64,000 nt of DNA. Origin: Brucella haematophila. GTDB lineage: Bacteria; Pseudomonadota; Alphaproteobacteria; Rhizobiales; Rhizobiaceae. This document shows, piece after piece, positions 2,093 through 33,003 of this stretch. The notes below the pieces were generated by a model. The model was given only the letters and a program-made list of their open reading frames with translations. It was not told the DNA's origin and searched no databases. Positions within the stretch are counted from its first letter, which is position 1, and each line of letters starts with the position of its first letter. A program made the translations under genes and the position numbers. The stretch spans positions 241,755 to 305,754 of the forward strand of contig NZ_VCPE01000005.1 of assembly GCF_005938105.1 (NCBI RefSeq), given 5' to 3'.

Positions 2093-2612
2093 CAGTATTC
2101 TCCAGTAGTCTCCTTCAAGGAGGAGACGAGTTAAACGGACAATACAACGATACGCTTTGCGAGCGGGCGATGTATTGATCCGGTGGCTTAAGCGCACCGG
2201 ACAGGTTTCATGCCACCACCATGGCACTGTGCTAAAACATGATACCGTAAAACACAAAGGTTTTTCGTATCAGATCATGTCTTAAAACAGACTGTCGGAG
2301 CGTTCAACAATAGTTAAAAGTCCAACGTTCCAACGCCATCCAAAGTGCAGGCGTTACTTGCCTAATATATAGGGAGTAAATTGCAACTTCAAACTGATAT
2401 CAAAAAACATTTTTTTGTTTTTTCTCTGACTGGTATCAACGTTTTGAAATTCGTATCATTTTGGCGCAATGAAAGCGGCAGGGGCAGGATTCGAAAAACT
2501 CCTGTATCTTGCTCAATCTGACGCTTTCGACGGATTTGAAGTTCCTGACTGCTGGCACCATGTAAATGAATGAAGCTGCATGGCCAGCATATCAGGCGGA
2601 AGGCTTACGCAC
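2093..2612. promoter_or_regulatory. Divergent folE / Fe-S scaffold control region with GTATCA cluster
   Basis: This AT-rich gap has no convincing gene. It contains the hexamer GTATCA or its complement at 2240-2245 (TGATAC), 2267-2272, 2433-2438 and 2453-2458, plus a near copy ATATCA at 2397-2402. About 0.1 copies would be expected by chance in 220 bases. A small AAAAAAC/GTTTTTT hairpin lies at about 2402-2420. It must hold the promoters of both flanking genes. The regulator is unknown. Confidence 0.4.
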
Positions 2613-3053
2613 ATGATCGACGACATCTACAACAAACGCATCCTGGAGTTTGCAGGCAATTTGGAGCGTATCGGTCGGCTGGCGGAGCCGGATGCCGTCG
2701 CAACGATGCATTCCAAGCTGTGCGGTTCGACGGTCACCGTCTATCTCAAGATGGCGGACGGTGTAGTGACCGATTTTGCACACGAGGTGAAAGCCTGTGC
2801 CTTGGGGCAGGCGTCTTCCTCTGTCATGGCGCGCAACGTCATCGGCGCGACTGCCGACGAACTGAAAGCCGTCCGCGATGCGATGTATGCCATGCTCAAG
2901 GAAAACGCTCCGTCACCGGAAGGACGATTCGAAGACCTGAAATATTTCGAGCCGGTGCGCGAATACAGAGCTCGCCACGCATCGACGCTTTTGACCTTCG
3001 ACGCCGTTGTCGATTGCATTCGCCAGATCGAAGACAAAGCCAAGGCCGCCTGA
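2613..3053 (+). CDS. Iron-sulfur cluster assembly scaffold protein, NifU/IscU N-terminal type
   Basis: This is a small scaffold on which transient Fe-S clusters are built before transfer to target proteins. The 146-residue product has the three expected cysteines, in SKLCGSTV, KACALGQASSS and AVVDCIRQ, spaced as in IscU/NifU. The usual Asp next to the first Cys is replaced (CGST instead of CGD), as in several alphaproteobacterial homologues. The ATG is preceded by GGAAGG at good spacing. Other in-frame codons upstream lack a site. It is followed after four bases by yidD, so the two are probably co-transcribed. Which cysteine desulfurase it works with cannot be told from here. Confidence 0.85.
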   Translation: MIDDIYNKRILEFAGNLERIGRLAEPDAVATMHSKLCGSTVTVYLKMADGVVTDFAHEVKACALGQASSSVMARNVIGATADELKAVRDAMYAMLKENAPSPEGRFEDLKYFEPVREYRARHASTLLTFDAVVDCIRQIEDKAKAA

Positions 3054-3057
3054 CCCA

Positions 3058-3429
3058 ATGTGCTCCTGTGGCGAAGACCACACGACTGATACGCAGCCTC
3101 CAGCAAAGCGATACAGCCGTAATTTCACCGAGCGCTGGCGCAAGACGCCGGGGAGGGTGTTTGGCACGGCGTTTGTCCGATTCTATCAGCTGACACTGTC
3201 GTCGCTGATCGGAAATTCCTGCCGCCATATGCCGACCTGTTCCGAATATGCCTATGAAGCGATTGCGCGTCATGGCCTGTGGAGTGGCGGCTGGATGGGG
3301 CTTTTCCGGGTCATGCGCTGCGGCCCGTTCGGCACGCATGGTTTTGACCCCGTGCCGCGTGAATTGTCGGGCGAGCTGAAATGGTATCTGCCCTGGCGTT
3401 ACTGGCGCTGCTCGACACCCCACCAATAA
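3058..3429 (+). CDS. yidD: Membrane protein insertion efficiency factor YidD
   Basis: YidD is a small peripheral inner-membrane protein that helps YidC and Sec insert membrane proteins. The diagnostic core is present: FYQLTLSSLIGNSCRHMPTC, then SEYAYEAIARHGLWSGGWMG and RVMRCGPFGTHGFDPVP, with the family's three conserved cysteines. The chosen ATG gives a 123-residue protein with a short polar N-terminal extension (MCSCGEDHTT). The start lies four bases after the stop of the Fe-S scaffold gene, which suggests translational coupling. In many bacteria yidD sits next to rnpA and yidC; in this group it is detached, as here. Confidence 0.93.
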   Translation: MCSCGEDHTTDTQPPAKRYSRNFTERWRKTPGRVFGTAFVRFYQLTLSSLIGNSCRHMPTCSEYAYEAIARHGLWSGGWMGLFRVMRCGPFGTHGFDPVPRELSGELKWYLPWRYWRCSTPHQ

Positions 3430-3653
3430 ATACCAGCATTTTTTCCCGACGCTTAGAATTCATTAACGATATCAATGTTTCTTAGAGAATAAGAATTGAG
3501 GCATCGTTATGGTCTTTTTCAGGCCGCAATTTGCCTGCAATGCAGCTGAAGCGCATCCTGCAAGATGTGCCTAATGATCAAAAGGCTGGAGTGGTTATAA
3601 CGACACGAATGTCGCTTAAGACCGATCTGGCATTTTTACATCCGCGAGCCACC

Positions 3654-4853
3654 ATGCTGACATCGTCGTCCCGTATCGCACGTTTCGTTGCTTCTGTAGC
3701 GTTTGGAGCCACTGTTCTTTGTGCCTCCACAGCATTGGCGAAGCCGTCGTGGGTCGTGTTCGACGCTGACAGCAACCGAATTCTTGGGCAGGACGACGCG
3801 AATATCCAGCGCGCACCGGCATCGCTCGCCAAGATGATGACGCTTTACATCACGTTTGAAGCTTTGAAGACGGGCCGTCTCCATTGGGACGACGAGATGC
3901 CCATTTCCAAGAATGCTGCTGCGAAGGTGCGCATGAAGCTCTGGCTCAAGCCGGAGCAGACCATTTCCGTGCGCGACACGGTCAATGCGATGATCATCAT
4001 TTCGGCAAATGATGCGGCAACCGTGATGGGCGAATATATCGGCGGCTCTGAAGCGGGTTTCGGCCGTCTGATGACGCAGCGCGCACGTCAGATCGGCATG
4101 AAGAGCACTTTCTTTGTCAATCCTTCGGGACTGACCGCGAATATGACCCAGCTCACCACCGCGCGCGATATGGCGGTGCTCGGTATGGCTCTGCGCCGCG
4201 ACTTCCCTGATCAGTATGCACTGTTTTCGCAGCGCTCTTTTACCTATCGCGGCCGGGTTTATAACGGCCACAACAATCTGATGTACCGCTATGGCGGCGT
4301 CGATGGCATCAAGACCGGCTATACAAACGTATCCGGCTATAATCTCGTTTCGTCCGCCATTATCGGCGGCAAGCATCTCGTGGGAGTGGTGCTGGGCGCC
4401 GGTTCGGCAGGCGAGCGTGATGGCCAGATGGCCAAGCTTCTGACCCGCTATGGCAATGCCAGCGGCGAGGGTACGGCAGTAGCGATGGCAAAGCCGGTCG
4501 CATTTGCGCCGTCGCCGAAAGAAACCCCGAAGAAGGATTCGGTTGCGGACCTGATTGACGATTCCCAGATCGAGCAGGGCGATGGCGGCTATCTCGTCGC
4601 GTCCGCCGGTGCGGCCTGGCGTATCCAGCTTGCTGCAACGCCGACGCGCGCCGGGGCTGCTGAGCTTCAGGAAAAGCTGCGCCCCGCCGTGGATCAGGTT
4701 GCCCATGGTCTGAGGGGCGAAATTTCACCGGATGGCAAGCGCCGCAAGGTCTATCGCGTCTGGTTTGGCGGCTTCAAGGATTCTGCCTCCGCTGAAAAGG
4801 CCTGCGCCAAGCTGAAGAAGCAGCGTATCGACTGCCTGCCCATCAAGGGCTGA
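3654..4853 (+). CDS. D-alanyl-D-alanine carboxypeptidase with C-terminal SPOR domain
   Basis: This is a low-molecular-mass penicillin-binding protein (PBP5/6, peptidase S11 type) that trims the last D-Ala from peptidoglycan stem peptides in the periplasm. A signal peptide fits residues 1-29 (cleavage after CASTALA). The three active-site motifs are seen: SLAKM (SxxK), SAN (SxN) and KTG in GIKTGYTNVSGY. The last 80 or so residues (AWRIQLAATPTRAG onward) match a SPOR domain, which binds denuded glycan at division sites. Upstream in-frame ATGs at 3609 and 3531 would add 15 or 41 residues before the signal peptide. None has a strong ribosome site, so the start is uncertain. Confidence 0.9.
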   Translation: MLTSSSRIARFVASVAFGATVLCASTALAKPSWVVFDADSNRILGQDDANIQRAPASLAKMMTLYITFEALKTGRLHWDDEMPISKNAAAKVRMKLWLKPEQTISVRDTVNAMIIISANDAATVMGEYIGGSEAGFGRLMTQRARQIGMKSTFFVNPSGLTANMTQLTTARDMAVLGMALRRDFPDQYALFSQRSFTYRGRVYNGHNNLMYRYGGVDGIKTGYTNVSGYNLVSSAIIGGKHLVGVVLGAGSAGERDGQMAKLLTRYGNASGEGTAVAMAKPVAFAPSPKETPKKDSVADLIDDSQIEQGDGGYLVASAGAAWRIQLAATPTRAGAAELQEKLRPAVDQVAHGLRGEISPDGKRRKVYRVWFGGFKDSASAEKACAKLKKQRIDCLPIKG

Positions 4854-5013: not shown

Positions 5014-6993
5014 ATGTCGAATACCGTTTCCATGCAATTCCCTGATGGTTCCGTACGGGACTATGATGCATCGACCACCGGCGCTGCACTTGCGGAATCA
5101 ATCTCCAAATCTCTCGCAAAAAAGGCAGTGGCCTATGCCGTCGACGGCACCGTGCGTGATCTTTCCGATCCGCTTGGCGCTTCCGGCAAGATCGAGATTC
5201 TCACCCGCGAAGATCCGCGCGCGCTTGAACTGATCCGTCACGATACGGCGCACGTTCTGGCAGAGGCTGTTCAGGAGCTTTTCCCGGGTACGCAGGTTAC
5301 CATTGGCCCCGTCATCGAAAACGGTTTCTATTACGACTTTGCGCGGAATGAACCGTTCACCCCGGACGATCTGCCGGTGATCGAAAAGAAGATGCGCGAG
5401 ATCATTCAGCGCAACAAAGCGTTCACCAAGGAAATCTGGTCGCGCGACAAGGCCAAGCAGGTTTTTGCCGACAAGGGCGAGGCCTACAAGGTCGAACTCG
5501 TCGATGCCATTCCAGAAGGTCAGGATCTCAAGATCTATTACCAGGGCGACTGGTTCGATCTTTGCCGCGGTCCGCACATGGCTTCCACGGGCCAGATCGG
5601 CAATTCCTTCAAGCTGATGAAGGTTGCCGGTGCTTACTGGCGCGGTGATTCCAACAATCCGATGCTGACCCGCATCTACGGCACCGCTTTTGCCAACGAC
5701 AACGACCTTCAGGCCTATCTGCATATGCTTGAAGAAGCCGAAAAGCGCGATCATCGTCGCCTTGGCCGCGAAATGGACCTGTTCCATTTCCAGGAAGAAG
5801 GACCGGGCGTCGTGTTCTGGCACGCCAAGGGCTGGAAAATGTTCCAGAATCTGGTGAGCTACATGCGCCGTCGCCTCGACAGCCACGGCTATCAGGAAGT
5901 CAACGCGCCGCAGGTGCTCGACAAGTCGCTCTGGGAGACTTCCGGTCACTGGGGTTGGTATCGCGACAACATGTTCAAGGTAACGGTTGCCGGTGACGAC
6001 ACCGACGACGACCGCGTCTTTGCGCTGAAGCCGATGAACTGCCCCGGCCACGTGCAGATTTTCAAGCATGGCCTCAAGTCGTACCGTGATCTGCCGATCA
6101 AGCTTGCCGAGTTCGGCAATGTGCATCGCTATGAACCGTCGGGCGCTCTGCATGGCCTCATGCGCGTGCGCGGCTTTACGCAGGACGATGCGCACATCTT
6201 CTGCACCGAAGAGCAGATGGCTGCGGAATGCCTGCGTATCAACGATCTTATTCTGTCGGTCTATAAGGATTTCGGCTTTGAAGGGATCACGATCAAGCTC
6301 TCGACGCGCCCTGAAAAGCGAGTCGGTTCGGACGAGCTTTGGGATCGCGCTGAAAGCGTGATGATGACTGTTCTCGAACAGATCGAGCAGCAGTCGGACG
6401 ACATCAAGACCGGTATCCTGCCGGGTGAGGGTGCGTTCTACGGGCCGAAGTTCGAATATACGCTGAAGGACGCCATCGGTCGCGAATGGCAGTGCGGCAC
6501 CACGCAGGTCGATTTCAACCTGCCGGAACGTTTTGGCGCCTTCTACATCGACAATGAATCGGAAAAGCGCCAGCCGGTCATGATCCATCGCGCCATCTGC
6601 GGCTCCATGGAACGTTTCCTCGGCATTCTGATCGAAAACTTTGCCGGCCATATGCCGCTCTGGTTCGCGCCGGTTCAGGTCGTGGTGACGACGATCACTT
6701 CGGACGCCGACGATTATGCCATCGAAACAGCTGCAAAGCTGAAGGCTGCCGGTTTGCAGGTTGTCACTGATCTGCGCAACGAGAAGATCAACTACAAGGT
6801 TCGCGAACATTCGCTCCAGAAGGTTCCGGTCATTCTCGTTTGCGGCAAGCGTGAAGCGGAAGAACAGACGGTCAATATGCGCCGCTTCGGCTCTCGCGAT
6901 CAGGAACCGATGACACGCGATGAGGCGATTGCCCGTCTTGTTGAAGAGGCAACCCCTCCGGATCTGATCCGCCTCAAGAATGGCGGCAGATAA
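5014..6993 (+). CDS. thrS: Threonyl-tRNA synthetase
   Basis: ThrRS charges tRNA-Thr and edits mischarged Ser-tRNA-Thr. The 659-residue length is normal. Domains in order: TGS (1-65), the editing domain with [16 protein letters not shown] and a [16 protein letters not shown] zinc-like motif (about 65-240), the class II catalytic core ([18 protein letters not shown], then [11 protein letters not shown] and [20 protein letters not shown], with the Cys and His zinc ligands), and the anticodon-binding domain (about 550-650). It stands alone, ending in a strong intrinsic terminator. No T-box-like leader is seen upstream, as expected for this phylum. Confidence 0.98.
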
Positions 6994-25033: not shown

Positions 25034-25358
25034 ACTGAAACTCTCTTCATTCCTACTCGGTGTTCACATCGCTATACGGATTTGCTAATGCAAACAAGGA
25101 TGAAGCTATAAACTTGAGCTGCTTTGTACCGTTTTAAGAACGGCAATATTGACGTGTTTCGCGGCGGAATGGTTGGCCCAAGCCGGTCTTATTTGGCGCC
25201 AGTCCCCTAGTGATATTGCCTCGACACATTATGAAGAAATTCACTCCAATCTTGCGGCTCATCGACACAACAAACAGCGCGGCCCAATTAGTAGGGATGC
25301 TTCAATTGTGGACGTTTGCTGTGGAGTCGGGAGTAATATCAACTCAGCTCAACTGTGG
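25034..25358. other. Transition from core to accessory DNA
   Basis: From about 25140 the base composition turns AT-richer, and no supported ORF was found up to the end of the unknown minus-strand gene. The left boundary of the accessory region is somewhere here, but no repeat or tRNA marks it. Confidence 0.35.
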
Positions 25359-26042
25359 TTATTTTCTCGAAAATCGTTCCAGTATTCTATTGGCTCGCCC
25401 GGCATCTCCACCGAAGAAATTTGTAAGCTGACCTAGAGCTTTATCCATCACTGCTGGATATAATTCCCCTGTTCTCCTCACAAACTCCAATACTTTGCCA
25501 ATCCTACTGAAATGTAATCTTAATCCCGCTTTCCATGCGGCGGTACCTTCTTCAGGATACTCTATATCACTGCATGATACTCCTCTATCATTCATTATTG
25601 CATTCATGGCATTGTCGAAATTTAGTCTTATATTCTTTTTTTTTGGCATTTTTGCGATTGAGGGAACCCAATTACCAAATAGTTCATCAACTTCCGAATC
25701 AGGTGACAGTGGTCGCGCACCATGAGAACCGTCACGCGGCAACGCGTTGATGCCGCTTGTTCCTGGAACGTTTGCACCGTGAGTTGCGGCGTCTCCTAAT
25801 AATGAATCAATCGAGAAATCTGTGTAGTTCCGGGCACGTTTTGCCAGAGTAAGGCCACCAGCGGAAGGGGCTAAACGTTTACCGGGAAGTTTCATGGCAG
25901 GACCAGATCGCCCCGGGGCCTGTGCTCCAGATATAATACTACGTTGTGAAGCGTGAGTGTCCATACTGGCTCTCGCAGCTTCTCGCGCTGCTATGTTTTC
26001 CGGCTCTAGACCGAAAAAATGCAACATTTCTTCAACTTGCAT
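25359..26042 (-). CDS. Unrecognised 227-residue protein, candidate effector-like
   Basis: I do not recognise this protein. The first 100 residues are rich in Ala, Ser, Gly and Pro and look disordered. A short motif TDFSIDSLLG lies near the middle and a basic patch KMPKKKNIRL near residue 135. The C-terminal 90 residues look helical (WKAGLRLHFSRIGKVLEFVR, then ALGQLTNFFGG) and end in a basic tail RANRILERFSRK. No signal peptide is present. The codon use is AT-richer than its neighbours, and it sits in an island next to an integrative element. The disordered start and basic tail resemble type IV or III secreted effectors, but this is a guess. The ATG at 26042 was preferred to a TTG five codons upstream. 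Confidence 0.6.
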   Translation of the reverse strand: MQVEEMLHFFGLEPENIAAREAARASMDTHASQRSIISGAQAPGRSGPAMKLPGKRLAPSAGGLTLAKRARNYTDFSIDSLLGDAATHGANVPGTSGINALPRDGSHGARPLSPDSEVDELFGNWVPSIAKMPKKKNIRLNFDNAMNAIMNDRGVSCSDIEYPEEGTAAWKAGLRLHFSRIGKVLEFVRRTGELYPAVMDKALGQLTNFFGGDAGRANRILERFSRK

Positions 26043-26229
26043 AACATTATCTTTCAAAATCTATTCAATATGAATTTACGTACAACTGGTGACTTTAAAG
26101 AATAAACATAGGAATAATTTCGACGCAGAATTTAATTCAATACATATTGGATCACGATAATCAGCCATTATCAACGGTAACAAATTACGGCTCCAATTTA
26201 TTAGAATCTATTCAGCCGCCAAAGACTAC

Positions 26230-26511
26230 CTACCCCACATAGTAAACAGTGACGATCTTGCGATCCCCGAAGACCATCAGCGGTCCGTCATTCAGCAGTT
26301 CGAACAGCACGGCTTCGTCAAGTGGAAGCGGGATTGTTATTTCTTCGAGGTATAGCGCCTGCCACGAAATAGACCGCTCTCTCTGTAATTCGCGCTGCAT
26401 CAAACGAAGCGCGGCCTCGGCTTCTGGCCGCTGGTCCTGGCGGAAGAATCCGCCGCACCAATCCTGAACATGATCATAGGTGATTGTGTAATAGGTTACA
26501 GTGTCTGTCAT
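26230..26511 (-). CDS. Small hypothetical protein, 93 residues
   Basis: The protein starts MTDTVTYYTITYDHVQDWCG and contains a helical middle (PEAEAALRLMQRELQRERSI) and a beta-rich end (GPLMVFGDRKIVTVYYVG). No family is recognised. A GTG three codons upstream is also in frame. It lies in the accessory region between the unknown 227-residue protein and the split tRNA. The ordered amino acid pattern suggests a real gene. Confidence 0.5.
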   Translation of the reverse strand: MTDTVTYYTITYDHVQDWCGGFFRQDQRPEAEAALRLMQRELQRERSISWQALYLEEITIPLPLDEAVLFELLNDGPLMVFGDRKIVTVYYVG

Positions 26512-26988
26512 ACCGGTCACGCCCCCAAAGCACTCTCGCGGTACGCCCCCGCATTGTGCCCTTCGATCTTTGGTGATCAGGGTGTTAGTAACCGCACTGC
26601 GACGGCCTCACGACCTTTGGCTTCAGAGAAGCTTGGACATACGTCGCAAGCACCCTGACCATAAAGGACGAAGGTTCGGCGCCTTTCGGTGACGCCAACC
26701 ACGCAGTGATAAAGGGGTTACTAAGCCCCAGACCGCCGCGTAGCGGTCCATCCGTAGGCGTAAATCATTCCTGACGACTTGTCATATCCAAAATTCGTCA
26801 GCTGACAGGCTCTTGCGGAAATAATGGCATCTGGCGCGAACCGATCAAAATCATGGTCGGGAAAACACGCCGATCATACCGCTTTTCTATTTTAGAACAT
26901 AAGGATATTCGATAATTCAGCTGTTATTGCTGACAAGCTTTCTGTCTTGAAATCAACGCGCAAATCATGACATAGAAATCCAGTCGCT
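26512..26988. other. Non-coding stretch left of the split tRNA
   Basis: Apart from the candidate structured RNA and two hairpins, no gene is seen. The right end should hold the native promoter of the interrupted tRNA-Leu gene; TTGAAA at 26947-26952 followed by CATAGAAA near 26971 is a possible pair. Confidence 0.4.
26577..26658. ncRNA. Candidate structured RNA with three nested stems
   Basis: Three perfect stems are nested around one centre: TCAGGGTG/CACCCTGA (26577-26584 and 26651-26658), TGCGAC/GTCGCA (26598-26603 and 26643-26648) and GCTTC/GAAGC (26620-26624 and 26628-26632). Two more hairpins follow at 26714-26729 (GGGG/CCCC) and 26731-26748 (GACCGC/GCGGTC). There is no ORF here. The strand is not determined, and neither promoter nor T-run is clear, so this is only a candidate. 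Confidence 0.35.
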
Positions 26989-27032
26989 GCGGTCGTGGCG
27001 AAACTGGTATACGCAACGGACTTAAGATCCGT
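26989..27032 (+). pseudogene. 5' half of an interrupted tRNA-Leu(UAA)
   Basis: The sequence has the acceptor 5' strand GCGGTCG, a leucine-type D arm, and the anticodon stem-loop ACGGA-CTTAAGA-TCCGT with anticodon TAA at 27023-27025. The rest of the tRNA is missing here. Its matching 3' half, ending in CGACCGC-ACCA, lies 2.6 kb away at 29614-29670. The two acceptor strands pair perfectly, and joining the halves at GGACTTAA gives an 86-base tRNA-Leu. An integrative element therefore interrupts the gene in the anticodon loop. Confidence 0.85.
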
Positions 27033-27048
27033 TCGGGGGTCTTTTTTT
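27025..27048 (+). terminator. Terminator formed at the left junction of the element
   Basis: AGATCC, which includes the 3' strand of the anticodon stem, pairs with GGGTCT around GTTCGG (one G-U pair) and is followed by seven Ts. It would stop transcription coming from the old tRNA promoter right after the anticodon loop. Confidence 0.6.
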
Positions 27049-27057
27049 ACCGTATAT

Positions 27058-27134
27058 GTTACGCTATCGTATTGACAATCCTTGAAATTACAGGATATTT
27101 TTCTCGTTTGTGACAAATGTTACGATATCGTAAC
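27058..27134. promoter_or_regulatory. Promoter framed by two copies of a palindromic operator
   Basis: GTTACGATATCGTAAC at 27119-27134 is a perfect 16-bp palindrome. A diverged copy, GTTACGCTATCGTATT, lies at 27058-27073, 61 bases away. Between them is a -35 box TTGACA (27072-27077) and an AT-rich -10 candidate GATATTTT near 27094-27101, reading toward the cargo genes. The winged-helix regulator of the element is the obvious candidate binder. Confidence 0.6.
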
Positions 27135-27141
27135 GGATGTT

Positions 27142-27169
27142 GTGACCTAGAACCCGTGACCCAGTGACC
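27142..27169. repeat. GTGACC repeats near the left end (candidate integrase arm sites)
   Basis: GTGACC occurs at 27142-27147, 27156-27161 and 27164-27169, about 120 bases inside the left junction. The same hexamer clusters near the right end. They are candidates for arm-type integrase sites. Confidence 0.4.
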
Positions 27170-27183
27170 TAAGAGGTAAATTC

Positions 27184-27579
27184 GTGTCCAAAATTGCAAA
27201 GATCATGTGCGCCCTGAGCGCCACTTTCGTGCTCGTATCGGCTCCAGTCGAGGCGGCTTCCTTCGGTGCCCGTGGTGGCTTCAGCGGAGGCCGTTCGTCC
27301 TTCTCGTCGCGCTCCTTCTCTGCCCCTCGCAGCTACTCAGCGCCTCGGACTTATTCCGCCCCGCGTTCCTACTCGGCTCCCCGCACGACAACCCGAACGA
27401 TCATCCGAGAGAACCACTATCGGTCCTCAGGTGGCGGCTTCAGGACGATACCGGACTTCAACGATGACCCCGACACGACCCATGCGGATGTCCTCAGGAT
27501 GTTCAACAGGGCAATCGTGGCGGCTGAGGATCGGGAAGAAAAGGAAGCCTTGGCGTCTGCCGTGGCTACGCTCCAGTGA
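27184..27579 (+). CDS. Secreted Ser/Pro/Arg repeat protein, element cargo
   Basis: The 131-residue product has a signal peptide (MSKIAKIMCALSATFVLVSA, cleavage near VEA-AS). A Gly/Ser/Arg-rich stretch follows, and then tandem hexapeptides of the form SYSAPR/TYSAPR (about residues 44-68). The C-terminal part is folded-looking and acidic (TTHADVLRMFNRAIVAAEDR). GTG is the start, with AGAGG seven bases before it. It is the first gene after the operator-framed promoter. Repeat tails of this kind are common in envelope or secreted proteins, and a specific role is unknown. Confidence 0.75.
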   Translation: MSKIAKIMCALSATFVLVSAPVEAASFGARGGFSGGRSSFSSRSFSAPRSYSAPRTYSAPRSYSAPRTTTRTIIRENHYRSSGGGFRTIPDFNDDPDTTHADVLRMFNRAIVAAEDREEKEALASAVATLQ

Positions 27580-27797
27580 GGGGTGATCCCTGCACGAAAT
27601 GCCGGTTCTACGATGACGACTGGGGAAGCAACTGCCGACACCCTGAGTTGCTCAAATGGTGCCCCGTCAACGGCAACCAGCCGAGCTACCCCCACGATAA
27701 CCGGAAGCAGGACGGTAAGTGTGGCATTGAGGGGAAGTATTTCGAACCCCGGACCACCTTAAGAAGCCTTCTTCGGGGTCTTGCGCGTCTGGCTTAG
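27576..27797 (+). CDS. Small cysteine-motif protein coupled to the secreted repeat protein
   Basis: The GTG start overlaps the TGA of the preceding gene (GTGA), so translation is probably coupled. The 73-residue product contains CTKC, then NCRHPE, WCPVNG and KCGIEG. This five-cysteine pattern looks like a compact metal-binding or disulfide-bonded fold, and a FEPR-type segment follows. There is no signal peptide. No family is recognised with certainty. Similar short CxxC...C...C proteins occur in phages and genomic islands. Confidence 0.6.
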   Translation: MRGDPCTKCRFYDDDWGSNCRHPELLKWCPVNGNQPSYPHDNRKQDGKCGIEGKYFEPRTTLRSLLRGLARLA

Positions 27798-27906
27798 GTA
27801 CTCCGCATCACGCGCCGCAATATGCCGCTCCAGTTCCTCCCTCAGCCGCTCATCAGCTAACCTGAGGTTCTCCGGGGTGTGACTATCGATGACGCGGGAC
27901 TTGTTC
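27760..27906 (-). pseudogene. Start-less remnant ORF inside the element
   Basis: On the minus strand an open frame reads VIDSHTPENLRLADERLREE, then LERHIAARDAEYL and a basic end KTPKKAS. The composition looks like a genuine helical protein, but no ATG, GTG or TTG lies between the upstream stop and this text. It is probably the tail of a deleted gene. Confidence 0.3.
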
Positions 27907-27929
27907 TAACACCTTAGTTTAATAACCGT

Positions 27930-27965
27930 CCCCTAAGCCTATTGCGTAGTCGTTACGCTTAGGGG
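27930..27965. promoter_or_regulatory. Inverted repeat before the element's regulator gene
   Basis: CCCCTAAGC pairs with GCTTAGGGG around 18 bases, and an inner CGTA/TACG pair lies inside. TATATA follows at about 27968 as a possible -10. It may be an autoregulatory operator of the winged-helix gene 50 bases downstream. Confidence 0.45.
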
Positions 27966-28017
27966 GTATATACGCGGGCGTAAGAGTTCCGATTTGTATC
28001 TTGTAGGAGAGCAGACG

Positions 28018-28425
28018 ATGACCGCATCGAACACAACCGATCAGGCTGAAGAGGTCATGATTGCAAGAAAGCTGACTAGGCTTCTGGATTTCTTCCAAGG
28101 GGAGAATACCAAGATGCAAATCAATCTCTTGCAAACATTCCTTCACATTAAGGCTAACCCAGACATCCCTTTCAAGAAGCTCGAAGCACTCTTGGGCACG
28201 TCCAATGCGTCCGTGTCCCGGAATATCGCTGTGCTGACTTCTGAAGGGTACAAGAAACGAGGCTCCGACGACCGATACGAAGGTCGCAACCTCGTTGAAA
28301 CCCGAGAGGTCCCCACGGACAAGACCTCAAAGGTAGCAAGGCTGACCCCTGAGGGTGAAGCTGTGTTCGATGAGTTTGTCCGCATCCTAAGGAGTGGCAA
28401 CAATGGCAGTAAGACTGAGAGGTAA
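28018..28425 (+). CDS. Winged-helix transcriptional regulator (MarR-like)
   Basis: The 135-residue protein contains a predicted winged helix: INLLQTFLHIKANPDIPFKK, then LEALLGTSNASVSRNIAVLT as helix-turn-helix, and a charged wing (KKRGSDDRYEGRNLVETREV) ending in LTPEGEAVFDEF. This layout is that of MarR/ArsR-like repressors. AGGAG lies eight bases before the ATG. The integrase start overlaps its end by 23 bases, so both are on one transcript. It is the likely repressor of the element's operator-framed promoter and perhaps of its own gene. Confidence 0.78.
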   Translation: MTASNTTDQAEEVMIARKLTRLLDFFQGENTKMQINLLQTFLHIKANPDIPFKKLEALLGTSNASVSRNIAVLTSEGYKKRGSDDRYEGRNLVETREVPTDKTSKVARLTPEGEAVFDEFVRILRSGNNGSKTER

Positions 28426-29428
28426 GGTCTGGCAAGTTGACGTAACGCTTGCTGGGCATGGTCGTCTTCGGCCCACCTTTGAAACAGAAGGTGAGGCACG
28501 GACGTGGGAGCGTGATGCAATCCACGCGGCACAGACCGGACGCCCTCTCCCTGACACGGGTACAAATATCAAGCAAGGTGGCGGTCGTATCTCCGTCCTC
28601 AAGGACTTAGTTCCTGAGGTTGAGCAAGACTGGCTGGCCGAAGGTGCCTCAGCGTTCAAAGACCTCAGCCGAAACCTAAGGTGTTTCGTTGACTGGTTCG
28701 GAGAGCGCCGCCACCCGAGCGAGATAGATGAGACCACGCTCGACAGGTATTCGAACTACCTTCGTACTGAGAAGCAGAACATGGGATCGACCGTCAATCG
28801 CAAGATGTCGGCTGTCCGGGTGCTGCTGAAGAAGGCCAAGCGATACAAGCTTATCACTTCACTTCCTGAGTTCACGAAGCTGCCGGAAACGAAAGGCTCT
28901 CTCAACTTCCTGAACTTCGGGGAAGAGGAGCCGGTCCTGAAGAAGCTGGATCACCTCGGCTATGACGCCCTGCACGATCTGGTCTCCTTCCTGATTGATA
29001 CAGGTTGTCGCATCAATGAAGCCCTGAGCGTCGAGTGGAAGACCATTCGCGGCGACAGGGTGACGTTCGAGAACCGCAAGAACGGCCAGTTCGGCACCGT
29101 GCCGCTGACCAAGAGAGCCGCTCAGGCGCTCAAGAACAGAAAGAAGCTCGGGACAGACCCCGACCGCCCCTTCGGTGACATCAATTACGATGGTGCCCGA
29201 GGCGTTCTCCGGTCAGTCTATAGCCAGCTCGGCGGGGAGTTCGCTAAGATCACCCAGCCTTTCCACATCTACAGACACTCTTGTGCAAGCCGTCTGGCGA
29301 TCAAAAACGTCAACGCTAAGCGCATCATGGAGTGGATGGACCACTCGTCGATCATCGTTACGCAGCGCTATATGAAGCTGGCTGTGTCCGATCTGGACGA
29401 GGCAAGAAACGCACTAGAAGCAGCCTGA
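28403..29428 (+). CDS. Tyrosine recombinase / phage-type integrase
   Basis: This is the site-specific recombinase of the element. The 341-residue protein has a small N-terminal arm-binding region, a core-binding SAM-like domain (about 75-165, FVDWFGERRHPSEIDETTLD) and a catalytic domain. The catalytic residues are seen in order: Arg in DTGCRINEALSVEW, Lys in the FENRKNGQFGTV hairpin, HxxR in FHIYRHSCASRL, His in EWMDHSSI, and the nucleophile Tyr in VTQRYMKLA. AAGGAG stands eight bases before the ATG, inside the regulator gene. The set is complete, so the enzyme is probably active. Confidence 0.93.
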   Translation: MAVRLRGKVWQVDVTLAGHGRLRPTFETEGEARTWERDAIHAAQTGRPLPDTGTNIKQGGGRISVLKDLVPEVEQDWLAEGASAFKDLSRNLRCFVDWFGERRHPSEIDETTLDRYSNYLRTEKQNMGSTVNRKMSAVRVLLKKAKRYKLITSLPEFTKLPETKGSLNFLNFGEEEPVLKKLDHLGYDALHDLVSFLIDTGCRINEALSVEWKTIRGDRVTFENRKNGQFGTVPLTKRAAQALKNRKKLGTDPDRPFGDINYDGARGVLRSVYSQLGGEFAKITQPFHIYRHSCASRLAIKNVNAKRIMEWMDHSSIIVTQRYMKLAVSDLDEARNALEAA

Positions 29429-29469
29429 TAAGGTTGCCAGAGGAATGCGCGTCACAGGGCCTTGAACTT

Positions 29470-29505
29470 GTGACCGAAGCTGTGACATAAGCAGTGACCG
29501 TGACC
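29470..29505. repeat. GTGAC(C/A) repeats near the right end (candidate integrase arm sites)
   Basis: GTGACC or GTGACA begins at 29470, 29482, 29494 and 29500, spaced 12, 12 and 6 bases. This lies about 110-145 bases from the right junction and matches the GTGACC cluster near the left end. Confidence 0.45.
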
Positions 29506-29594
29506 GCAGGCGTGGTGAAACTGGTAGACACAGCAGACTTAAAATCTGCCGTCCGTTCAAGGACTTACGGGTTCGATCCCCGTCGCCTGCACCA
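29506..29594 (+). tRNA. Complete tRNA-Leu(UAA), carried by the element
   Basis: All arms fold. The acceptor is GCAGGCG/CGCCTGC with encoded ACCA. The anticodon stem-loop is GCAGA-CTTAAAA-TCTGC with anticodon TAA at 29540-29542. The long variable arm is GTCC/GGAC and the T arm is ACGGG-TTCGATC-CCCGT. It differs from the interrupted host tRNA-Leu over the acceptor, variable and T arms, so it is not a simple duplication. It lies inside the right junction and upstream of the original tRNA terminator. Confidence 0.95.
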
Positions 29595-29613
29595 CTGACC
29601 CCCGAACATCAAA

Positions 29614-29670
29614 GGACTTAAAATCCGTCGCCTTTTAGGCTTGCGGGTTCAAGTCCCGCCGACCGCACCA
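29614..29670 (+). pseudogene. 3' half of the interrupted tRNA-Leu(UAA)
   Basis: Starting within the anticodon stem (GGACTTAAAATCCGT), this piece contains a variable arm (GCC/GGC), the T arm GCGGG-TTCAAGT-CCCGC and the acceptor 3' strand CGACCGC with ACCA. The acceptor pairs with the 5' half at 26989-26995. Confidence 0.85.
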
Positions 29671-29682
29671 CAATTATTCATG

Positions 29683-29714
29683 CAAAAGCCGCCGTGTTTT
29701 CCCGGCGGCTTTTG
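29683..29714. terminator. Terminator behind the tRNA-Leu locus, shared with wrbA
   Basis: CAAAAGCCGCCG and CGGCGGCTTTTG form a 12-bp stem followed by TTTTGA. It probably ended the original tRNA-Leu transcript and now ends that of the element-borne tRNA. On the other strand it can end wrbA. Confidence 0.8.
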
Positions 29715-29730
29715 TTTTGATCGGGCGCTA

Positions 29731-30330
29731 TCAGCCGTGCAGCTTGGCGGTGATTTCTGCGACACGCTTGCCCTGAAAACGTGCGCCTTCTAGTTCCTGT
29801 GCAGATGGCTGGCGCGAACCATCGCCGTCTGCCGTCGTCGTCATGCCGTAAGGCGCCCCGCCGCGCACCACATCATTGCCCATCTGCCCCTGATAGGCAT
29901 AGGAAAGCGGCACAATGATCATGCCATGATGCTGCAACTGCCACTGCGCCGAAATCAAGGCCAGTTCCGCGCCGCCATGCTGCGTCGCCGTTGAAACCAT
30001 CACCGAGCCGACCTTGTTGAGCAGCGCGCCCTTGGCCCACAGACCACCGGTCTGGTCGAGAAAATTTTTCATCTGCGCGGCCATCATGCCGTAGCGGGTC
30101 GCGGTGCCCAATATAATGGCGTCATATTCGACCAGATCGTTCGGCGATGCGATGGCTGCGTCCTGATCGACCTTATAATGCGAGGCCTTGGCGACTTCGA
30201 GCGGAACCAGTTCCGGCACCCGCTTGATCGTGACTTCCGCACCACCTTCGCGCGCACCTTCCGCCGCAGCCTTGGCCATCTGCTCCATATGCCCGTAGGA
30301 CGAATAGTACAGCACCAGAACTTTTACCAT
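29731..30330 (-). CDS. wrbA: NAD(P)H:quinone oxidoreductase, type IV
   Basis: WrbA is a flavodoxin-like FMN enzyme that reduces quinones by two electrons and so avoids semiquinone radicals. The 199-residue length is typical. The FMN phosphate loop is [19 protein letters not shown] at the N-terminus. [21 protein letters not shown] and the [10 protein letters not shown] segment form the rest of the flavin site. A GGAGA site lies before the ATG. It is divergent from the cinA-like gene. Confidence 0.96.
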
Positions 30331-30505
30331 CTGACGTCTCCGTTTTCGGTTTTACGGAACCCCTTTTCCGCATTCACTCAACTAGAGAGCATTTTCATTT
30401 TGGGAAGATGACCGAACGGAGGAACATTTTGTCTTTTGCGACAAACCGGTTGCGGCGGGGTGCACCTGAGGCTTAACTGTCGCCAGATTGAAATGGAGTC
30501 TGGGC

Positions 30506-31264
30506 ATGACCGACACTTCGCAGCAGGCCGTCAGGGCTGCAATGCTCTCCATTGGCGACGAACTTCTCTCCGGGCGCACCAAGGACAAGAACATCGGGCA
30601 TCTCGCCGATCTGCTGACGGCTGTGGGCATCGATCTCAAGGAAGTGCGCATCGTGCCGGACGAGGAAGACGCCATTGTCGCCGCGCTCAATGCCCTGCGT
30701 CCGAATTTTGATTATGTCTTCACTTCGGGCGGCATCGGCCCGACCCATGACGACATCACCGCCGACGCCGTTTCAAAAGCCTTTGATGTGCCCTGCATCT
30801 ATGATGAAAAGGCCATGAAGCTTCTCGGCGACAATTATGCCCGGCGCGGTCTGGAATTCACCGATTCCCGCAAGCGCATGGCCCGTATGCCGCAGGGTTC
30901 GGAACACATCGACAATCCGGTCTCTTCCGCACCGGGCTTTCACATTGGCAATGTCTATGTGATGGCGGGCGTTCCGTCCGTTTTTCAGGCCATGCTGGAC
31001 AATGTAATCCCCACCTTGCGGACCGGCCGCAAGCTTTTGTCACGCGCTGTGCTCTGTCCGTTCGGCGAAGGCGTCATCGGCGCGCCGCTGGCCGAAATCC
31101 AGAAGCAGAACCCCGACACGATCATCGGTTCCTATCCGAAATTCGAAAATGGACGCTTCAGCACCGAGCTTGTGGTACGCGGCAGCGATCCGCAGAAGAT
31201 CGATGCGGCAGCTGCCGAAATTGATGCCATGATTGCCGGGCTGGTGGCTTCCGGTGCAAGCTGA
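30506..31264 (+). CDS. CinA-type molybdopterin-binding domain protein
   Basis: The 252-residue protein consists of the MoaB/Mog-like fold that forms the N-terminal half of CinA; the C-terminal nicotinamide-nucleotide amidase domain is missing. The family motifs GDELLSGRTKDKNIGHLADL and TSGGIGPTHDDITADAVSKAF are clear. In full CinA this domain hydrolyses ADP-ribose. The role of the single-domain form is less certain. GGAG stands before the ATG. It is followed by the universal stress gene after about 110 bases. Confidence 0.88.
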   Translation: MTDTSQQAVRAAMLSIGDELLSGRTKDKNIGHLADLLTAVGIDLKEVRIVPDEEDAIVAALNALRPNFDYVFTSGGIGPTHDDITADAVSKAFDVPCIYDEKAMKLLGDNYARRGLEFTDSRKRMARMPQGSEHIDNPVSSAPGFHIGNVYVMAGVPSVFQAMLDNVIPTLRTGRKLLSRAVLCPFGEGVIGAPLAEIQKQNPDTIIGSYPKFENGRFSTELVVRGSDPQKIDAAAAEIDAMIAGLVASGAS

Positions 31265-31372
31265 CCAAACTGGCATATTCGAAAACACATCCTTTAAGTT
31301 TTGCAACCTTTTGCGTGCGCAACTCGTTGCATTCTATGCTAAAATGGAAAAACAGCTGGAAGGAGATCGGTC

Positions 31373-32218
31373 ATGACCTACAAAACGGTGGTTGCCTATT
31401 CCCGGAGCGAGGCCGAGCTGAAGCGGGTTCTATCCGCCATCGCGCTTTTGATGCGAAAAGTGCCCGATCTTCATGTCATCGGCCTCTATTCCATCCCCTC
31501 TCCCATCGTTTATGCCGACCCCAACGGGTTTATCGATCCCGGCATGTTCGAACTGCATGACAAGCAGCACAAGGAACTGTCCGAGCGGCTGAAACACGTC
31601 TTTGAAGAAGAGATGCGCCGTCAGGATGCGCATTTCGAATTCCGGATCACCCGCTCGGAAACCGGCACCGCTGCCGATGGCGTTTTGACCTCGTGTCTCG
31701 GTGCGGAATTGCTGGTTGCTGGCCAGCCGGACCCCGATGATCCCGCCACCAATGACGAAACCGCCGACACGATTGTCTTCAATTCAAGCTGTCCGGTTCT
31801 GCTCGTACCTTATGCACCTGTGATGCGGCCATTGTCGCTCGACCGGATTGTTGTTGCCTTCAACGGTAAGCGAGAAGCGGCCCGCGCCGCATTCGATGCC
31901 CTGCCCCTAATGAAACAGGCTGGCCGTACTGAAATCGTGTGGGTCGACCCGCCAGAAGCCGAGGGCGAGGACGAAGCGCTCGCCGGTACCGAGCTGGCTG
32001 AATCCATTGCTCGCCACGGCATCGAAGTGAATGTCACGCCGCTCGGCTCGAATGGACGCTATGCGCAGGATGCGCTGCGTGAACATATCATTGCTGAACG
32101 TGCTGATCTGCTCGTGATGGGCGCCTATAGCCATTCGCGCCTGCGCGAGCTAGTTTTCGGTGGTGTGACACGCTCAATGCTCAATGAACTTCCCGTTCTG
32201 ACACTGTTTTCGCGGTGA
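31373..32218 (+). CDS. Universal stress protein, tandem UspA domains
   Basis: The 281-residue protein contains two UspA folds. The second (about 150-281) keeps the ATP-binding signature G-x2-G-x9-G-S/T in MGAYSHSRLRELVFGGVTRS. The first (1-140) lacks a clear version of it. UspA proteins accumulate in stress and stasis and bind ATP or other ligands. AAGGAGA lies well placed before the ATG. No EcfG-type promoter was found upstream. Confidence 0.88.
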   Translation: MTYKTVVAYSRSEAELKRVLSAIALLMRKVPDLHVIGLYSIPSPIVYADPNGFIDPGMFELHDKQHKELSERLKHVFEEEMRRQDAHFEFRITRSETGTAADGVLTSCLGAELLVAGQPDPDDPATNDETADTIVFNSSCPVLLVPYAPVMRPLSLDRIVVAFNGKREAARAAFDALPLMKQAGRTEIVWVDPPEAEGEDEALAGTELAESIARHGIEVNVTPLGSNGRYAQDALREHIIAERADLLVMGAYSHSRLRELVFGGVTRSMLNELPVLTLFSR

Positions 32219-32421
32219 CATGTCTGCTCATTTCGAGCGGGCAATTATCCCCAATTCGCCGCATCCAGCCCCTTCAAGCCATAACAGACTTGCAAGATCG
32301 GTGTTTTTGCGGTTATCAGCACTACCCGGCGCTGACTGTGCCGGGTTGAAGAAACCTTTTCATCGTGTTGCAGCCCCTTAACGTGGGCGCAGACGACGAA
32401 AGCAAAGGTCTACACAGTTCA

Positions 32422-32488
32422 GCGCGCTTGACGGTGGTCATCGCGCATTTTTGGTTTAGCCAGTCTGTGGGCCACAGCCCACGGACTG
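32422..32488 (+). promoter_or_regulatory. Tandem hairpins in the gpt leader, possible attenuator
   Basis: The first hairpin (32422-32446) has GCGCG/CGCGC and TGAC/GTCA stems around GGTG and is followed by ATTTTT, like an intrinsic terminator. The second (32461-32488) is a 12-bp stem, CAGTCTGTGGGC with GCCCACGGACTG, containing one G-U pair and a CACA loop. It ends 17 bases before the gpt start codon. A terminator-like hairpin inside a 287-base leader suggests transcription attenuation or a riboswitch. Confidence 0.45.
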
Positions 32489-32505
32489 TTCCATGGAGCG
32501 TCTCG

Positions 32506-33003
32506 ATGTCCTTGCCCGATAAAGCCTTTCCCGTATCCTGGGATCAGTTCCACCGCGATGCCCGCGCGCTTGCCTGGCGCATTTCCGGCATGGGGCGCGA
32601 TTGGCGTGCAATCGTCGCGATTACGCGCGGCGGCCTGGTGCCTGCGGCCATTATCTGCCGTGAACTCGGCATCCGTCTTATCGAAACCGTCTGCATTGCC
32701 TCCTATCACGACTACACGTCGCAGGGCGAAATGCAGATCCTCAAGGGTATCGGCGAACAGCTTCTGGAAAATGGCGGTGAAGGCGTGATCGTCGTCGACG
32801 ACCTTACCGATACCGGCAAGACTGCGGCAATCGTCCGCGAAATGATGCCAAAGGCGCATTTTGCAACGGTTTATGCCAAGCCGAAAGGCCGCCCGCTGGT
32901 CGATACGTTCGTGACCGAAGTATCGCAGGACACCTGGATCTATTTCCCGTGGGACATGGGCTACACCTATCTGGAGCCGATTGCCGGCGACAAGCGCGGA
33001 TAA
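32506..33003 (+). CDS. gpt: Xanthine phosphoribosyltransferase
   Basis: Gpt salvages xanthine and guanine with PRPP to XMP and GMP. The 165-residue protein carries the PRPP-binding loop [14 protein letters not shown] and the N-terminal [19 protein letters not shown], and keeps the family length. The end [20 protein letters not shown] gives the purine-binding aromatic region. The ATG follows GGAG in the stem of a leader that folds into two hairpins. It stands alone and ends in a strong terminator. Confidence 0.94.

What the first reader, a model, noticed from the sequence alone, without database searches (positions are those of the whole stretch)
26989..29670. Integrative element that splits a tRNA-Leu(UAA) gene and supplies a different complete tRNA-Leu(UAA)
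Seen: the 5' half (acceptor GCGGTCG) and 3' half (CGACCGC-ACCA) of one tRNA-Leu are 2.6 kb apart, joined by GGACTTAA repeats in the anticodon loop. A complete but distinct tRNA-Leu(UAA) sits just inside the right end. Known: tRNA-targeting elements normally rebuild the target gene from their own att sequence. Here neither junction is a whole tRNA. Inference: the element destroys the host tRNA and replaces it, so losing the element by deletion rather than clean excision would be lethal if no other UAA-reading leucine tRNA exists. This is an addiction mechanism without a toxin.
Basis: partly seen in the sequence, partly recalled or inferred. Interest (0 to 1): 0.88.

Follow-up and report, generated by a model that had tools for sequence, protein, structure and literature searches.

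The report
Prophage remnant replacing an essential tRNA
A virus that hides in bacterial DNA has cut an essential transfer-RNA gene in two and supplies its own copy instead, a trick already described in print; the new part is that a few related bacteria seem to have kept such a viral copy for good after losing the virus.

Summary
A host tRNA-Leu(UAA) gene is split in its anticodon loop by a 2.6-kb insert carrying a different, complete tRNA-Leu(UAA), the only intact one found in this genome. A near relative has the clean empty site. The insert is the remnant of a T7-like temperate prophage; another species of the genus has a 42.4-kb version in the same gene, with the same layout.

This is tRNA-dependent lysogeny (published 2024), and T7-like rhizobial phages that replace tRNA-Leu were described in 2021. 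So this is a new, decayed member of a known kind.

Beyond what I found in print: (1) about 38 kb is lost, yet the tRNA, integrase and both att sites remain. (2) 3 of 35 genus genomes (G013, G017, G020) lack the core gene and instead have a tRNA-Leu(UAA) 98-99% identical to one on a T7-like viral contig, still joined to a short broken stub of that phage's integrase; they lie apart on gene trees. The phage tRNA has apparently become the host gene. (3) tRNA-Leu(CAA) is split in two species by another element. 'Addiction' fits but is untested.

The parts
26989..27025 (+). 5' half of the host (core) tRNA-Leu(UAA), to the anticodon loop
   Evidence: identical to the 5' half of the intact gene in G030, G016 and G024
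27018..27025 (+). att core, left copy (GGACTTAA; similarity runs on through [G/A]ATCCGT)
27031..27048 (+). right arm of an intrinsic terminator plus T-run (GTTCGGGGGTC T7), phage half at attL
   Evidence: 11-bp duplex with 29597-29607, -24.3 kcal/mol, 0 of 1000 shuffles as good; a stem of different sequence at the same place in G008
27110..27168 (+). four GTGAC repeats, candidate integrase arm-type sites (left)
   Evidence: only two places of the 64-kb window hold four GTGAC within 80 bp on this strand, the two ends of the insert; that they bind integrase is inference
27184..27579 (+). small ORF (131 aa), probably phage; part of its last third is like a protein upstream of MarR in the G008 prophage
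   Evidence: Pfam DUF6197, PHROG 762, tblastn 66% over 35 aa
28018..28425 (+). MarR-like regulator as in temperate T7-like phages
   Evidence: PHROG 9665 E 5.8e-17; 61% to G008; Pfam MarR_2 below its cut-off
28394..29428 (+). tyrosine integrase (ATG at 28403 also possible); segments with the catalytic R, HxxR, H and Y present
   Evidence: PF00589 E 3.3e-14; PHROG 1; 75% to the G008 prophage; segments located (catalytic roles recalled)
29470..29504 (+). four GTGAC repeats, candidate integrase arm-type sites (right)
29506..29594 (+). complete phage-borne tRNA-Leu(UAA), 89 nt, 74% identical to the core gene
29597..29607 (+). left arm of the attP terminator (GACCCCCGAAC)
29614..29621 (+). att core, right copy
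29614..29670 (+). 3' half of the host tRNA-Leu(UAA) with encoded CCA

Best explanation
This is the internally deleted remnant of a T7-like (Autographiviridae) temperate prophage that uses tRNA-dependent lysogeny. Shown from sequence: an insert with a tyrosine integrase sits at a short core in the anticodon loop of the single-copy host tRNA-Leu(UAA), which leaves the host gene in two halves; a complete, diverged tRNA-Leu(UAA), absent from relatives without such a prophage, sits between the integrase and the right att core and is the only intact UAA-anticodon leucine tRNA found in the genome; compared with the homologous prophage of G008 about 38 kb of phage genes are missing, but the tRNA end, the integrase and both att sites remain. 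Inferred: the integrase made the insertion; the phage tRNA is transcribed and charged and reads UUA codons for the host; selection for it is why decay spared that end; the integrase could still excise the remnant and restore the host gene.
For: Empty site in G030, 96% identical on both sides. Same layout (5' half, 42.4 kb of phage, MarR, int, complete tRNA-Leu(UAA), 3' half) in G008, whose near relative G033 has the empty site; that prophage encodes a T7-type RNA polymerase (PHROG 414, E 6e-268), DNA polymerase, connector, tail protein and terminase. Window ends match the two ends of that prophage: 26961-27172 at 75% (this includes the host 5' half), 27931-29671 at 72%. Only one intact tRNA-Leu(UAA) among 52 tRNA hits. 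Arm-like repeats at the two ends and nowhere else in the window. The nearest named phages are integrase-bearing T7-like phages; 7 of the 11 distinct ones read carry a complete tRNA-Leu within 3 kb of the integrase. The mechanism has been shown genetically in mycobacteriophages (PMC10865867).
Against: No expression, charging or excision data. UUA codons are rare (2 in the 8 genes counted), so the strength of selection is unmeasured. The attL copy has G where the host and attR have A, so the exact crossover is not fixed. 4 of 11 named relatives, and 3 of 9 order-level places with a near-full-length integrase match, have no tRNA-Leu within the stretch read, so the tRNA is not universal in the lineage. 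27173-27930 has no DNA-level match to the G008 prophage, so the deletion joint is only approximate.
Confidence: 0.93

Rival explanations
1. The tRNA at 29506 is an old host tRNA-Leu(UAA) and the split one is a pseudogene; the insert merely landed between two host copies.
For: Multi-copy tRNA genes occur; the tRNA looks like a normal bacterial tRNA-Leu.
Against: Relatives have one 86-nt gene across a clean empty site and not this tRNA. A related tRNA sits in the same place inside the intact G008 prophage and in G052 beside a related integrase.
Confidence: 0.02
2. The complete tRNA is a by-product of imprecise excision from an earlier host (the view taken of LUZ100's tRNA-Leu in PMC10134795) and is functionally neutral; the cell tolerates loss of tRNA-Leu(UAA).
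For: Phages do pick up tRNA genes; UUA is rare.
Against: The phage tRNA has the anticodon of the disrupted gene in each of the six cases where both could be read: UAA in G000, G008 and G052; UAG in G414 (host 3' half only); CAA in G017 and G027. It survives in a remnant that lost most phage genes. UUA codons do occur, and by decoding rules (recalled) only this tRNA reads them. Deleting the equivalent tRNA in mycobacteriophage Fionnbharth left lysogens only at very low frequency (PMC10865867, abstract).
Confidence: 0.04
3. For the GCCCGC-type genes of G013, G017 and G020: not independent phage captures, but one ancestral capture followed by differential loss, or later transfer between species.
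For: All three share the same 187-194-nt homologous block, and lie at what seems one syntenic locus: G013 and G017 beside thr dehydratase, G020 near the block on the other side of the locus after a rearrangement.
Against: Trees place them apart (G017 with G001, 100/100 by rpoB; G013 with G014 by thr dehydratase; G020 elsewhere); G001 and G014 carry the core gene and no integrase stub. In the two pairs measured the host copies are as far from each other (87% and 84%) as from the virus (88-89%). The shared extent could be the tRNA plus its promoter kept by selection.
Confidence: 0.4
4. The GCCCGC-type tRNA went from a host to the phage, not from phage to host.
For: The two are 98-99% identical and the direction of a transfer is not read from identity alone.
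Against: The block shared with the virus includes about 17 codons of the 5' end of an integrase that in the viral contig is an open frame (running off the contig end) and in the hosts is cut off or frame-shifted; sister species have the core gene.
Confidence: 0.1

Closest known systems
tRNA-dependent lysogeny (Guerrero-Bustamante & Hatfull 2024, PMC10865867; abstract, passages, sections 10 and 11 read)
   Same: Tyrosine integrase, short att core inside a tRNA gene, host tRNA rebuilt at neither junction, phage encodes a cognate tRNA.
   Different: Described for actinobacteriophages (Lys, Ile2, Leu-CAA), with Lactobacillus prophage Lj965 mentioned as a likely case; here a T7-like phage of an alphaproteobacterium, tRNA-Leu(UAA), and a remnant.
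Rhizobium leguminosarum phage TRX32-1 / RHEph01 group (PMC8631192; passages read)
   Same: T7-like temperate phages, 12-bp core in a host tRNA-Leu, complete phage tRNA-Leu that the authors say presumably replaces the interrupted one.
   Different: Their tRNA-Leu is UAG and lies antisense just upstream of the integrase; here UAA, downstream and co-directional. Apart from their four lysogens, that paper found no intact or degraded prophages of the group in 196 strains; here decay is the main feature.
Sinorhizobium meliloti prophages replacing tRNA genes (PMC11476347, PMC12429752; passages read)
   Same: Inactivated host tRNA gene replaced by a phage isoacceptor; the authors propose that this diversifies tRNA genes.
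   Different: In the passages seen, the replacement is part of a resident phage-related sequence; here three genomes have the tRNA with no integrase of the lineage at the locus.
Pseudomonas phage LUZ100 and Pelagibacter HTVC119P/HTVC200P (records read around the integrase; PMC10134795 passages)
   Same: MarR, integrase and a complete tRNA-Leu(UAA) side by side.
   Different: tRNA lies antisense between MarR and integrase; for LUZ100 it was read as an imprecise-excision relic; in the two pelagiphage records it is unannotated. Their attB was not tested here.
T7-like cyanophages P-SSP7 and S-TIP37 (PMC8776855; passages read)
   Same: T7-like phages that integrate into a host tRNA-Leu gene.
   Different: The authors found integration without stable lysogeny; no complete phage tRNA is mentioned in the passages seen.

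Membership tests
tRNA-dependent lysogeny | phage-type tyrosine integrase | tested here: met
tRNA-dependent lysogeny | short (about 10 bp) common core overlapping a host tRNA gene | tested here: met
   GGACTTAA plus [G/A]ATCCGT in G000, 13 bp GGACTTAAAATCC in G008, GACTTAAAATC in G052; collinear blocks overlap by 19 and 16 bp in G030 and G033
tRNA-dependent lysogeny | functional tRNA not rebuilt at attL or attR | tested here: met
   attL 25.1 bits, below the cut-off of 29, though ARAGORN calls it; attR lacks the 5' half
[quoted passage not shown]
tRNA-dependent lysogeny | disrupted host tRNA is single-copy | tested here: met
   all 52 hits lie in stretches read with ARAGORN; one (C55:158976) has no clear anticodon and one (C21:29871) is not called; 55-contig assembly, so a copy in a gap is not excluded
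tRNA-dependent lysogeny | phage tRNA needed for lysogeny or survival | not testable with these tools
   needs genetics
Autographiviridae (T7-like) temperate phage | T7-type RNA polymerase and virion gene set | tested here: not met
   none in the ORFs of the 2.6-kb insert; present in the homologous G008 prophage, so the window holds a fragment of such a phage, not a phage
Autographiviridae (T7-like) temperate phage | MarR regulator followed by integrase of the Pasto/LUZ100/HTVC type | tested here: met
conventional tRNA-integrating island that rebuilds its target | att segment completes the host tRNA | tested here: not met

The most novel reading that the evidence does not exclude
tRNA-dependent prophages act as a one-way ratchet on an essential gene: after integration kills the host tRNA-Leu(UAA), prophage decay leaves the phage tRNA as the only copy, so the core gene is permanently displaced. 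Within one genus there are two current occupants (G000 remnant, G008 full prophage) and three species (G013, G017, G020) with no integrase of this lineage at the locus, whose tRNA-Leu(UAA) still carries about 17 broken codons of a phage integrase. This explains why their tRNA-Leu(UAA) is only 75-78% identical to the core gene while tRNA-Leu(CAA) is 99-100% and tRNA-Leu(UAG) 96-100% identical across the genus genomes tested, wherever intact.
Probability: 0.75. Interest if true: 0.68.

Novelty: new member of a known kind. Interest (0 to 1): 0.52.

Why it matters
tRNA genes are often treated as vertically inherited, near-invariant parts of a genome. Here an essential one is held by a phage remnant in one species and, by integrase-stub evidence, has apparently been replaced for good by phage copies in others. 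That turns 'why do temperate phages carry tRNAs' and 'can a phage lock its tRNA into a host' into questions testable by comparative genomics, and it offers a reading of the tRNA-Leu beside the integrase in other T7-like phages (LUZ100, Pelagibacter HTVC119P and HTVC200P).

Tried and rejected
Considered and rejected: a cyanobacterial-type group I intron in the window's tRNA-Leu(UAA) (no Rfam intron match; the insert is mostly protein-coding phage DNA), although one relative, G027, seems to have such an intron. A second host tRNA-Leu(UAA) (none found). A functional tRNA at attL as called by ARAGORN. An apparent split of tRNA-Leu(UAG) in G013 turned out to be two contig ends meeting. A relic of the L195-type phage in relatives that keep the core tRNA: none among the genus tRNA loci searched, which match only in the tRNA and, in some, up to 14 bases before it. 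Naming the organism through plasmid records: no match. The integrase group that matches only from about residue 104 (G000:C55 and many relatives) has no tRNA in the stretches scanned (L003-L010; L205-L212 and L219; L011-L019 were not scanned) and was set aside.

Results against the reading: 4 of 11 named phages have no tRNA-Leu within the stretch read around the integrase, and the roseophage paper (PMC11092137, passages) reports no tRNA in its ten genomes, nine of them with an integrase. Of the 19 order-level loci scanned, 4 have a complete tRNA-Leu (L204, L213, L217, L218), L216 has only 3' parts of tRNAs, L214 has a tRNA-Lys and 13 have none. In L204, L217 and L218 only one tRNA-Leu was seen, so a split host gene was not shown there. 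G013 is a 72%-complete assembly. The rpoB tree lacks G013 (gene not found in its assembly), includes a G001 gene whose frame is broken in the assembly, has 11 of 22 inner branches open, and its bootstrap had not settled. G025 and G027 also have non-core tRNA-Leu(UAA) genes, with native-looking sequence upstream, which I cannot explain by a phage. L051 (integrase 68%) was not resolved: its tRNA-Leu(UAA) lies 0.8 kb away on the other strand. Viral contigs L052 and L053 (integrase 76%) end just after the integrase, so their tRNA region could not be read.
Full report
What is there. The window (G000:C45:241755-305754) holds a 2.6-kb insert in a tRNA-Leu(UAA) gene. The 5' half lies at 26989-27025 and the 3' half at 29614-29670, each ending or starting in the anticodon loop at the shared core GGACTTAA. 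A complete but different tRNA-Leu(UAA) lies at 29506-29594. The left junction is called a tRNA by ARAGORN but scores 25.1 bits against a cut-off of 29 with the Rfam tRNA model and folds little better than shuffles; the complete tRNA scores 56 bits with z -3.3.

Empty site. The near relative G030 is collinear with window 26228-27032 (96.6%) and 29610-33000 (96.4%); its two matching blocks overlap by 19 bp inside an intact 86-nt tRNA-Leu(UAA). In a search of 35 genus genomes with the 5' half and its upstream flank, 32 matched. Of the 30 loci returned, 28 hold an intact 86-87-nt gene and two, G000 and G008, are split. The five remaining genomes are G013, G017 and G020 (no match) and G025 and G027 (weak match), treated below.

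Only copy. The tRNA search of the genome gave 52 hits (150 of 152 candidates scored). All 52 lie in stretches that I ran through ARAGORN; the leucine set is UAG, CAA, CAG, GAG and the phage-borne UAA. One hit (C55:158976) has no clear anticodon and one (C21:29871) is not called. UUA codons occur (one each in two of eight genes counted, one of the two being the integrase). That only tRNA-Leu(UAA) reads UUA is established knowledge, not a result here.

What the insert is. It encodes a 131-aa ORF, a MarR-like regulator and a tyrosine integrase with its catalytic segments. Its closest relative among the genus genomes, in G008 (75% identity), belongs to a 42.4-kb prophage in the same tRNA gene; G033, a near relative of G008, shows that empty site. 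The G008 prophage has a T7-type RNA polymerase, DNA polymerase, connector, tail protein, internal virion protein and terminase; of the seven of its proteins scanned, one had no match. The window matches the left end of that prophage (26961-27172, 75%, host 5' half included) and its right end (27931-29671, 72%), and the 131-aa ORF is over 35 residues like a G008 protein upstream of MarR. So the window holds both ends of such a phage with about 38 kb lost between them, the joint lying somewhere in 27173-27300 or so.

The att region. In G000 and G008 the phage halves on either side of the core pair as an intrinsic terminator: 11 bp, -24.3 kcal/mol, 0 of 1000 shuffles as good in G000; -20.1, 2 of 1000 in G008, with a different stem sequence. 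The core would thus sit in the loop of a terminator downstream of the phage tRNA, and integration splits it; the consequence for expression is not known. Four GTGAC repeats lie at each end of the insert, and these are the only places in the 64-kb window with four of them within 80 bp on that strand; G008 has two and three at the corresponding places. I take them as arm-type integrase sites (inference).

How it most likely works. Integrase joins phage and host in the anticodon loop and kills the host tRNA; the phage supplies the same isoacceptor; the cell lives on the phage tRNA. This is tRNA-dependent lysogeny, defined with genetics in mycobacteriophages (PMC10865867: abstract, passages, sections 10 and 11). 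The TRX32-1 group of T7-like rhizobial phages was described in 2021 as interrupting tRNA-Leu and carrying a complete tRNA-Leu that presumably replaces it (PMC8631192, passages), and Sinorhizobium prophages likewise (PMC11476347 and PMC12429752, passages). The steps shown here are the anatomy, the empty sites and the single copy; expression, charging, essentiality and excision are inferred.

How widespread. Of the 13 best phage hits (20 listed of 251 records), two are RefSeq duplicates; of the 11 distinct phages I read up to 3 kb either side of the integrase, 7 carry a complete tRNA-Leu: UAA in Pasto, LUZ100, HTVC119P and HTVC200P; UAG in Lo5R7ANS, RHEph01 and TRX32-1. None was found in CRP-804, CRP-403, CRP-118 and HTVC109P. 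In the order, 20 of 397 genomes have the integrase at E up to 1e-25. Of nine places where the match spans nearly the whole protein (G000, G052, G170, G239, G279, G325, G414, G418, G429), six have a complete tRNA-Leu beside it (G000, G052, G170, G239, G325, G414) and three have none within the stretch read. G008, found in another search, adds a seventh. A split host gene was seen directly in G000, G008 and G052, and a host 3' half of the UAG isotype in G414. The G052 element is a 14.5-kb island with a type I restriction-modification system.

Permanent replacement. G013, G017 and G020 have no match to the core 5' half but a tRNA-Leu(UAA) beginning GCCCGC, 75-78% identical to the core gene and 98-99% to a tRNA on viral contig L195 (9.2 kb held of 39.3 kb). 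L195 encodes a MarR protein and a terminase with a T7-type domain and carries the tRNA beside the 5' end of an integrase similar to that of G052 (33% over 75 residues, E 1.8e-10), which runs off the contig end. In the three genomes 187-194 nt align at 88-89% to L195 (E 1e-65 to 2e-68); the block holds the tRNA, about 50 bases before it and about 17 codons of the integrase, in the hosts cut off or frame-shifted. No integrase of this lineage was detected in the 11-12-kb loci, and the genus-wide search showed no near-full-length relative of the window's integrase in these genomes. Among the genus tRNA loci compared, only these three align across the stub. A thr-dehydratase tree places G013 with G014 and G017 with G001, both of which have the core gene, and G020 apart; an rpoB tree, without G013, again pairs G017 with G001 (100/100) and puts G020 elsewhere. 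Compared with its sister G001, G017 has a 347-bp segment in place of 1079 bp at the locus, with the tRNA in the opposite orientation. The control isoacceptors are stable: tRNA-Leu(CAA) is 99-100% identical over its whole length in 14 of 16 genomes tested, and tRNA-Leu(UAG) 96-100% in 15 of 16. The exceptions are G013's UAG gene, cut by contig ends (100% over the 67 bases held together), and G017 and G027 for CAA, which are split. The GAG and CAG isoacceptors were not tested this way.

A second system. In G017 and G027 tRNA-Leu(CAA) is split at CTCAAAA, and a different complete tRNA-Leu(CAA) lies near the 3' half on the other strand. In G017 an integrase C-terminal domain, just under Pfam's cut-off, lies nearby. 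No integrase of the window's lineage was detected in these stretches. The two halves lie on different contigs, so insert length is unknown, and no empty site was aligned.

Limits. Genus identity is not established by any search; from recall the window resembles the Brucella/Ochrobactrum group. The number of replacement events (one to three) is not settled, and transfer from host to phage is unlikely but not excluded. I did not find a report of prophage-free replacement scars in the searches made (listings only, open-licence papers), but PMC11476347 already proposes that phages diversify tRNA genes.

Noticed in passing
L124 (G027:C13), Rfam match 4102-4309 on the - strand: tRNA-Leu(UAA) interrupted by a roughly 208-nt insert that matches the group I intron family (RF00028, E 3.9e-6, below the curated cut-off); its exons are only 78% identical to the core gene.
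   Followed up: partly
L188/L189 (G017:C118, C80) and L190/L191 (G027:C53, C60): tRNA-Leu(CAA) split in its anticodon loop with a different complete tRNA-Leu(CAA) near the 3' half: apparently a second tRNA-dependent system in the genus.
   Followed up: partly
L117 (G052:C1:579598-594112): 14.5-kb island using the same integrase type and its own tRNA-Leu(UAA), carrying a type I restriction-modification system and a resolvase-like ORF (resolvase by eye, not scanned): tRNA-dependent integration outside an intact phage.
   Followed up: partly
L129 2893-2978 and L220 2787-2872 (Pelagibacter phages HTVC119P and HTVC200P): complete tRNA-Leu(UAA), unannotated in the records, between MarR and integrase.
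   Followed up: no
L120 (G025:C9), tRNA at 5390-5478, - strand: 89-nt tRNA-Leu(UAA) more like the phage ones (84-87%) than the core gene (75%), in the usual position with native-looking upstream sequence; origin unexplained.
   Followed up: no
L125 (G000:C55:73000-80000), integrase ORF 2632-3591, - strand: integrase-like gene with relatives in many genus genomes, next to two very similar, oppositely oriented porin-like genes (porin by recall).
   Followed up: no
L192 (G029:C3, 123519-123570 of the contig): orphan 3' half of tRNA-Leu(CAA) at 96% in a genome with an intact copy; looks like an att relic.
   Followed up: no
L121/L185 (G020:C24:44.5-70.0 kb): the segment between thr dehydratase and tRNA-Leu(GAG) seems inverted relative to G000, bringing tRNA-Leu(GAG) beside the UAA gene.
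   Followed up: no
window 25106-26227: about 1.1 kb with no match in the otherwise collinear near relative G030.
   Followed up: no
window 2100-2138, - strand: THF-II riboswitch (Rfam RF02977, 62.8 bits).
   Followed up: no
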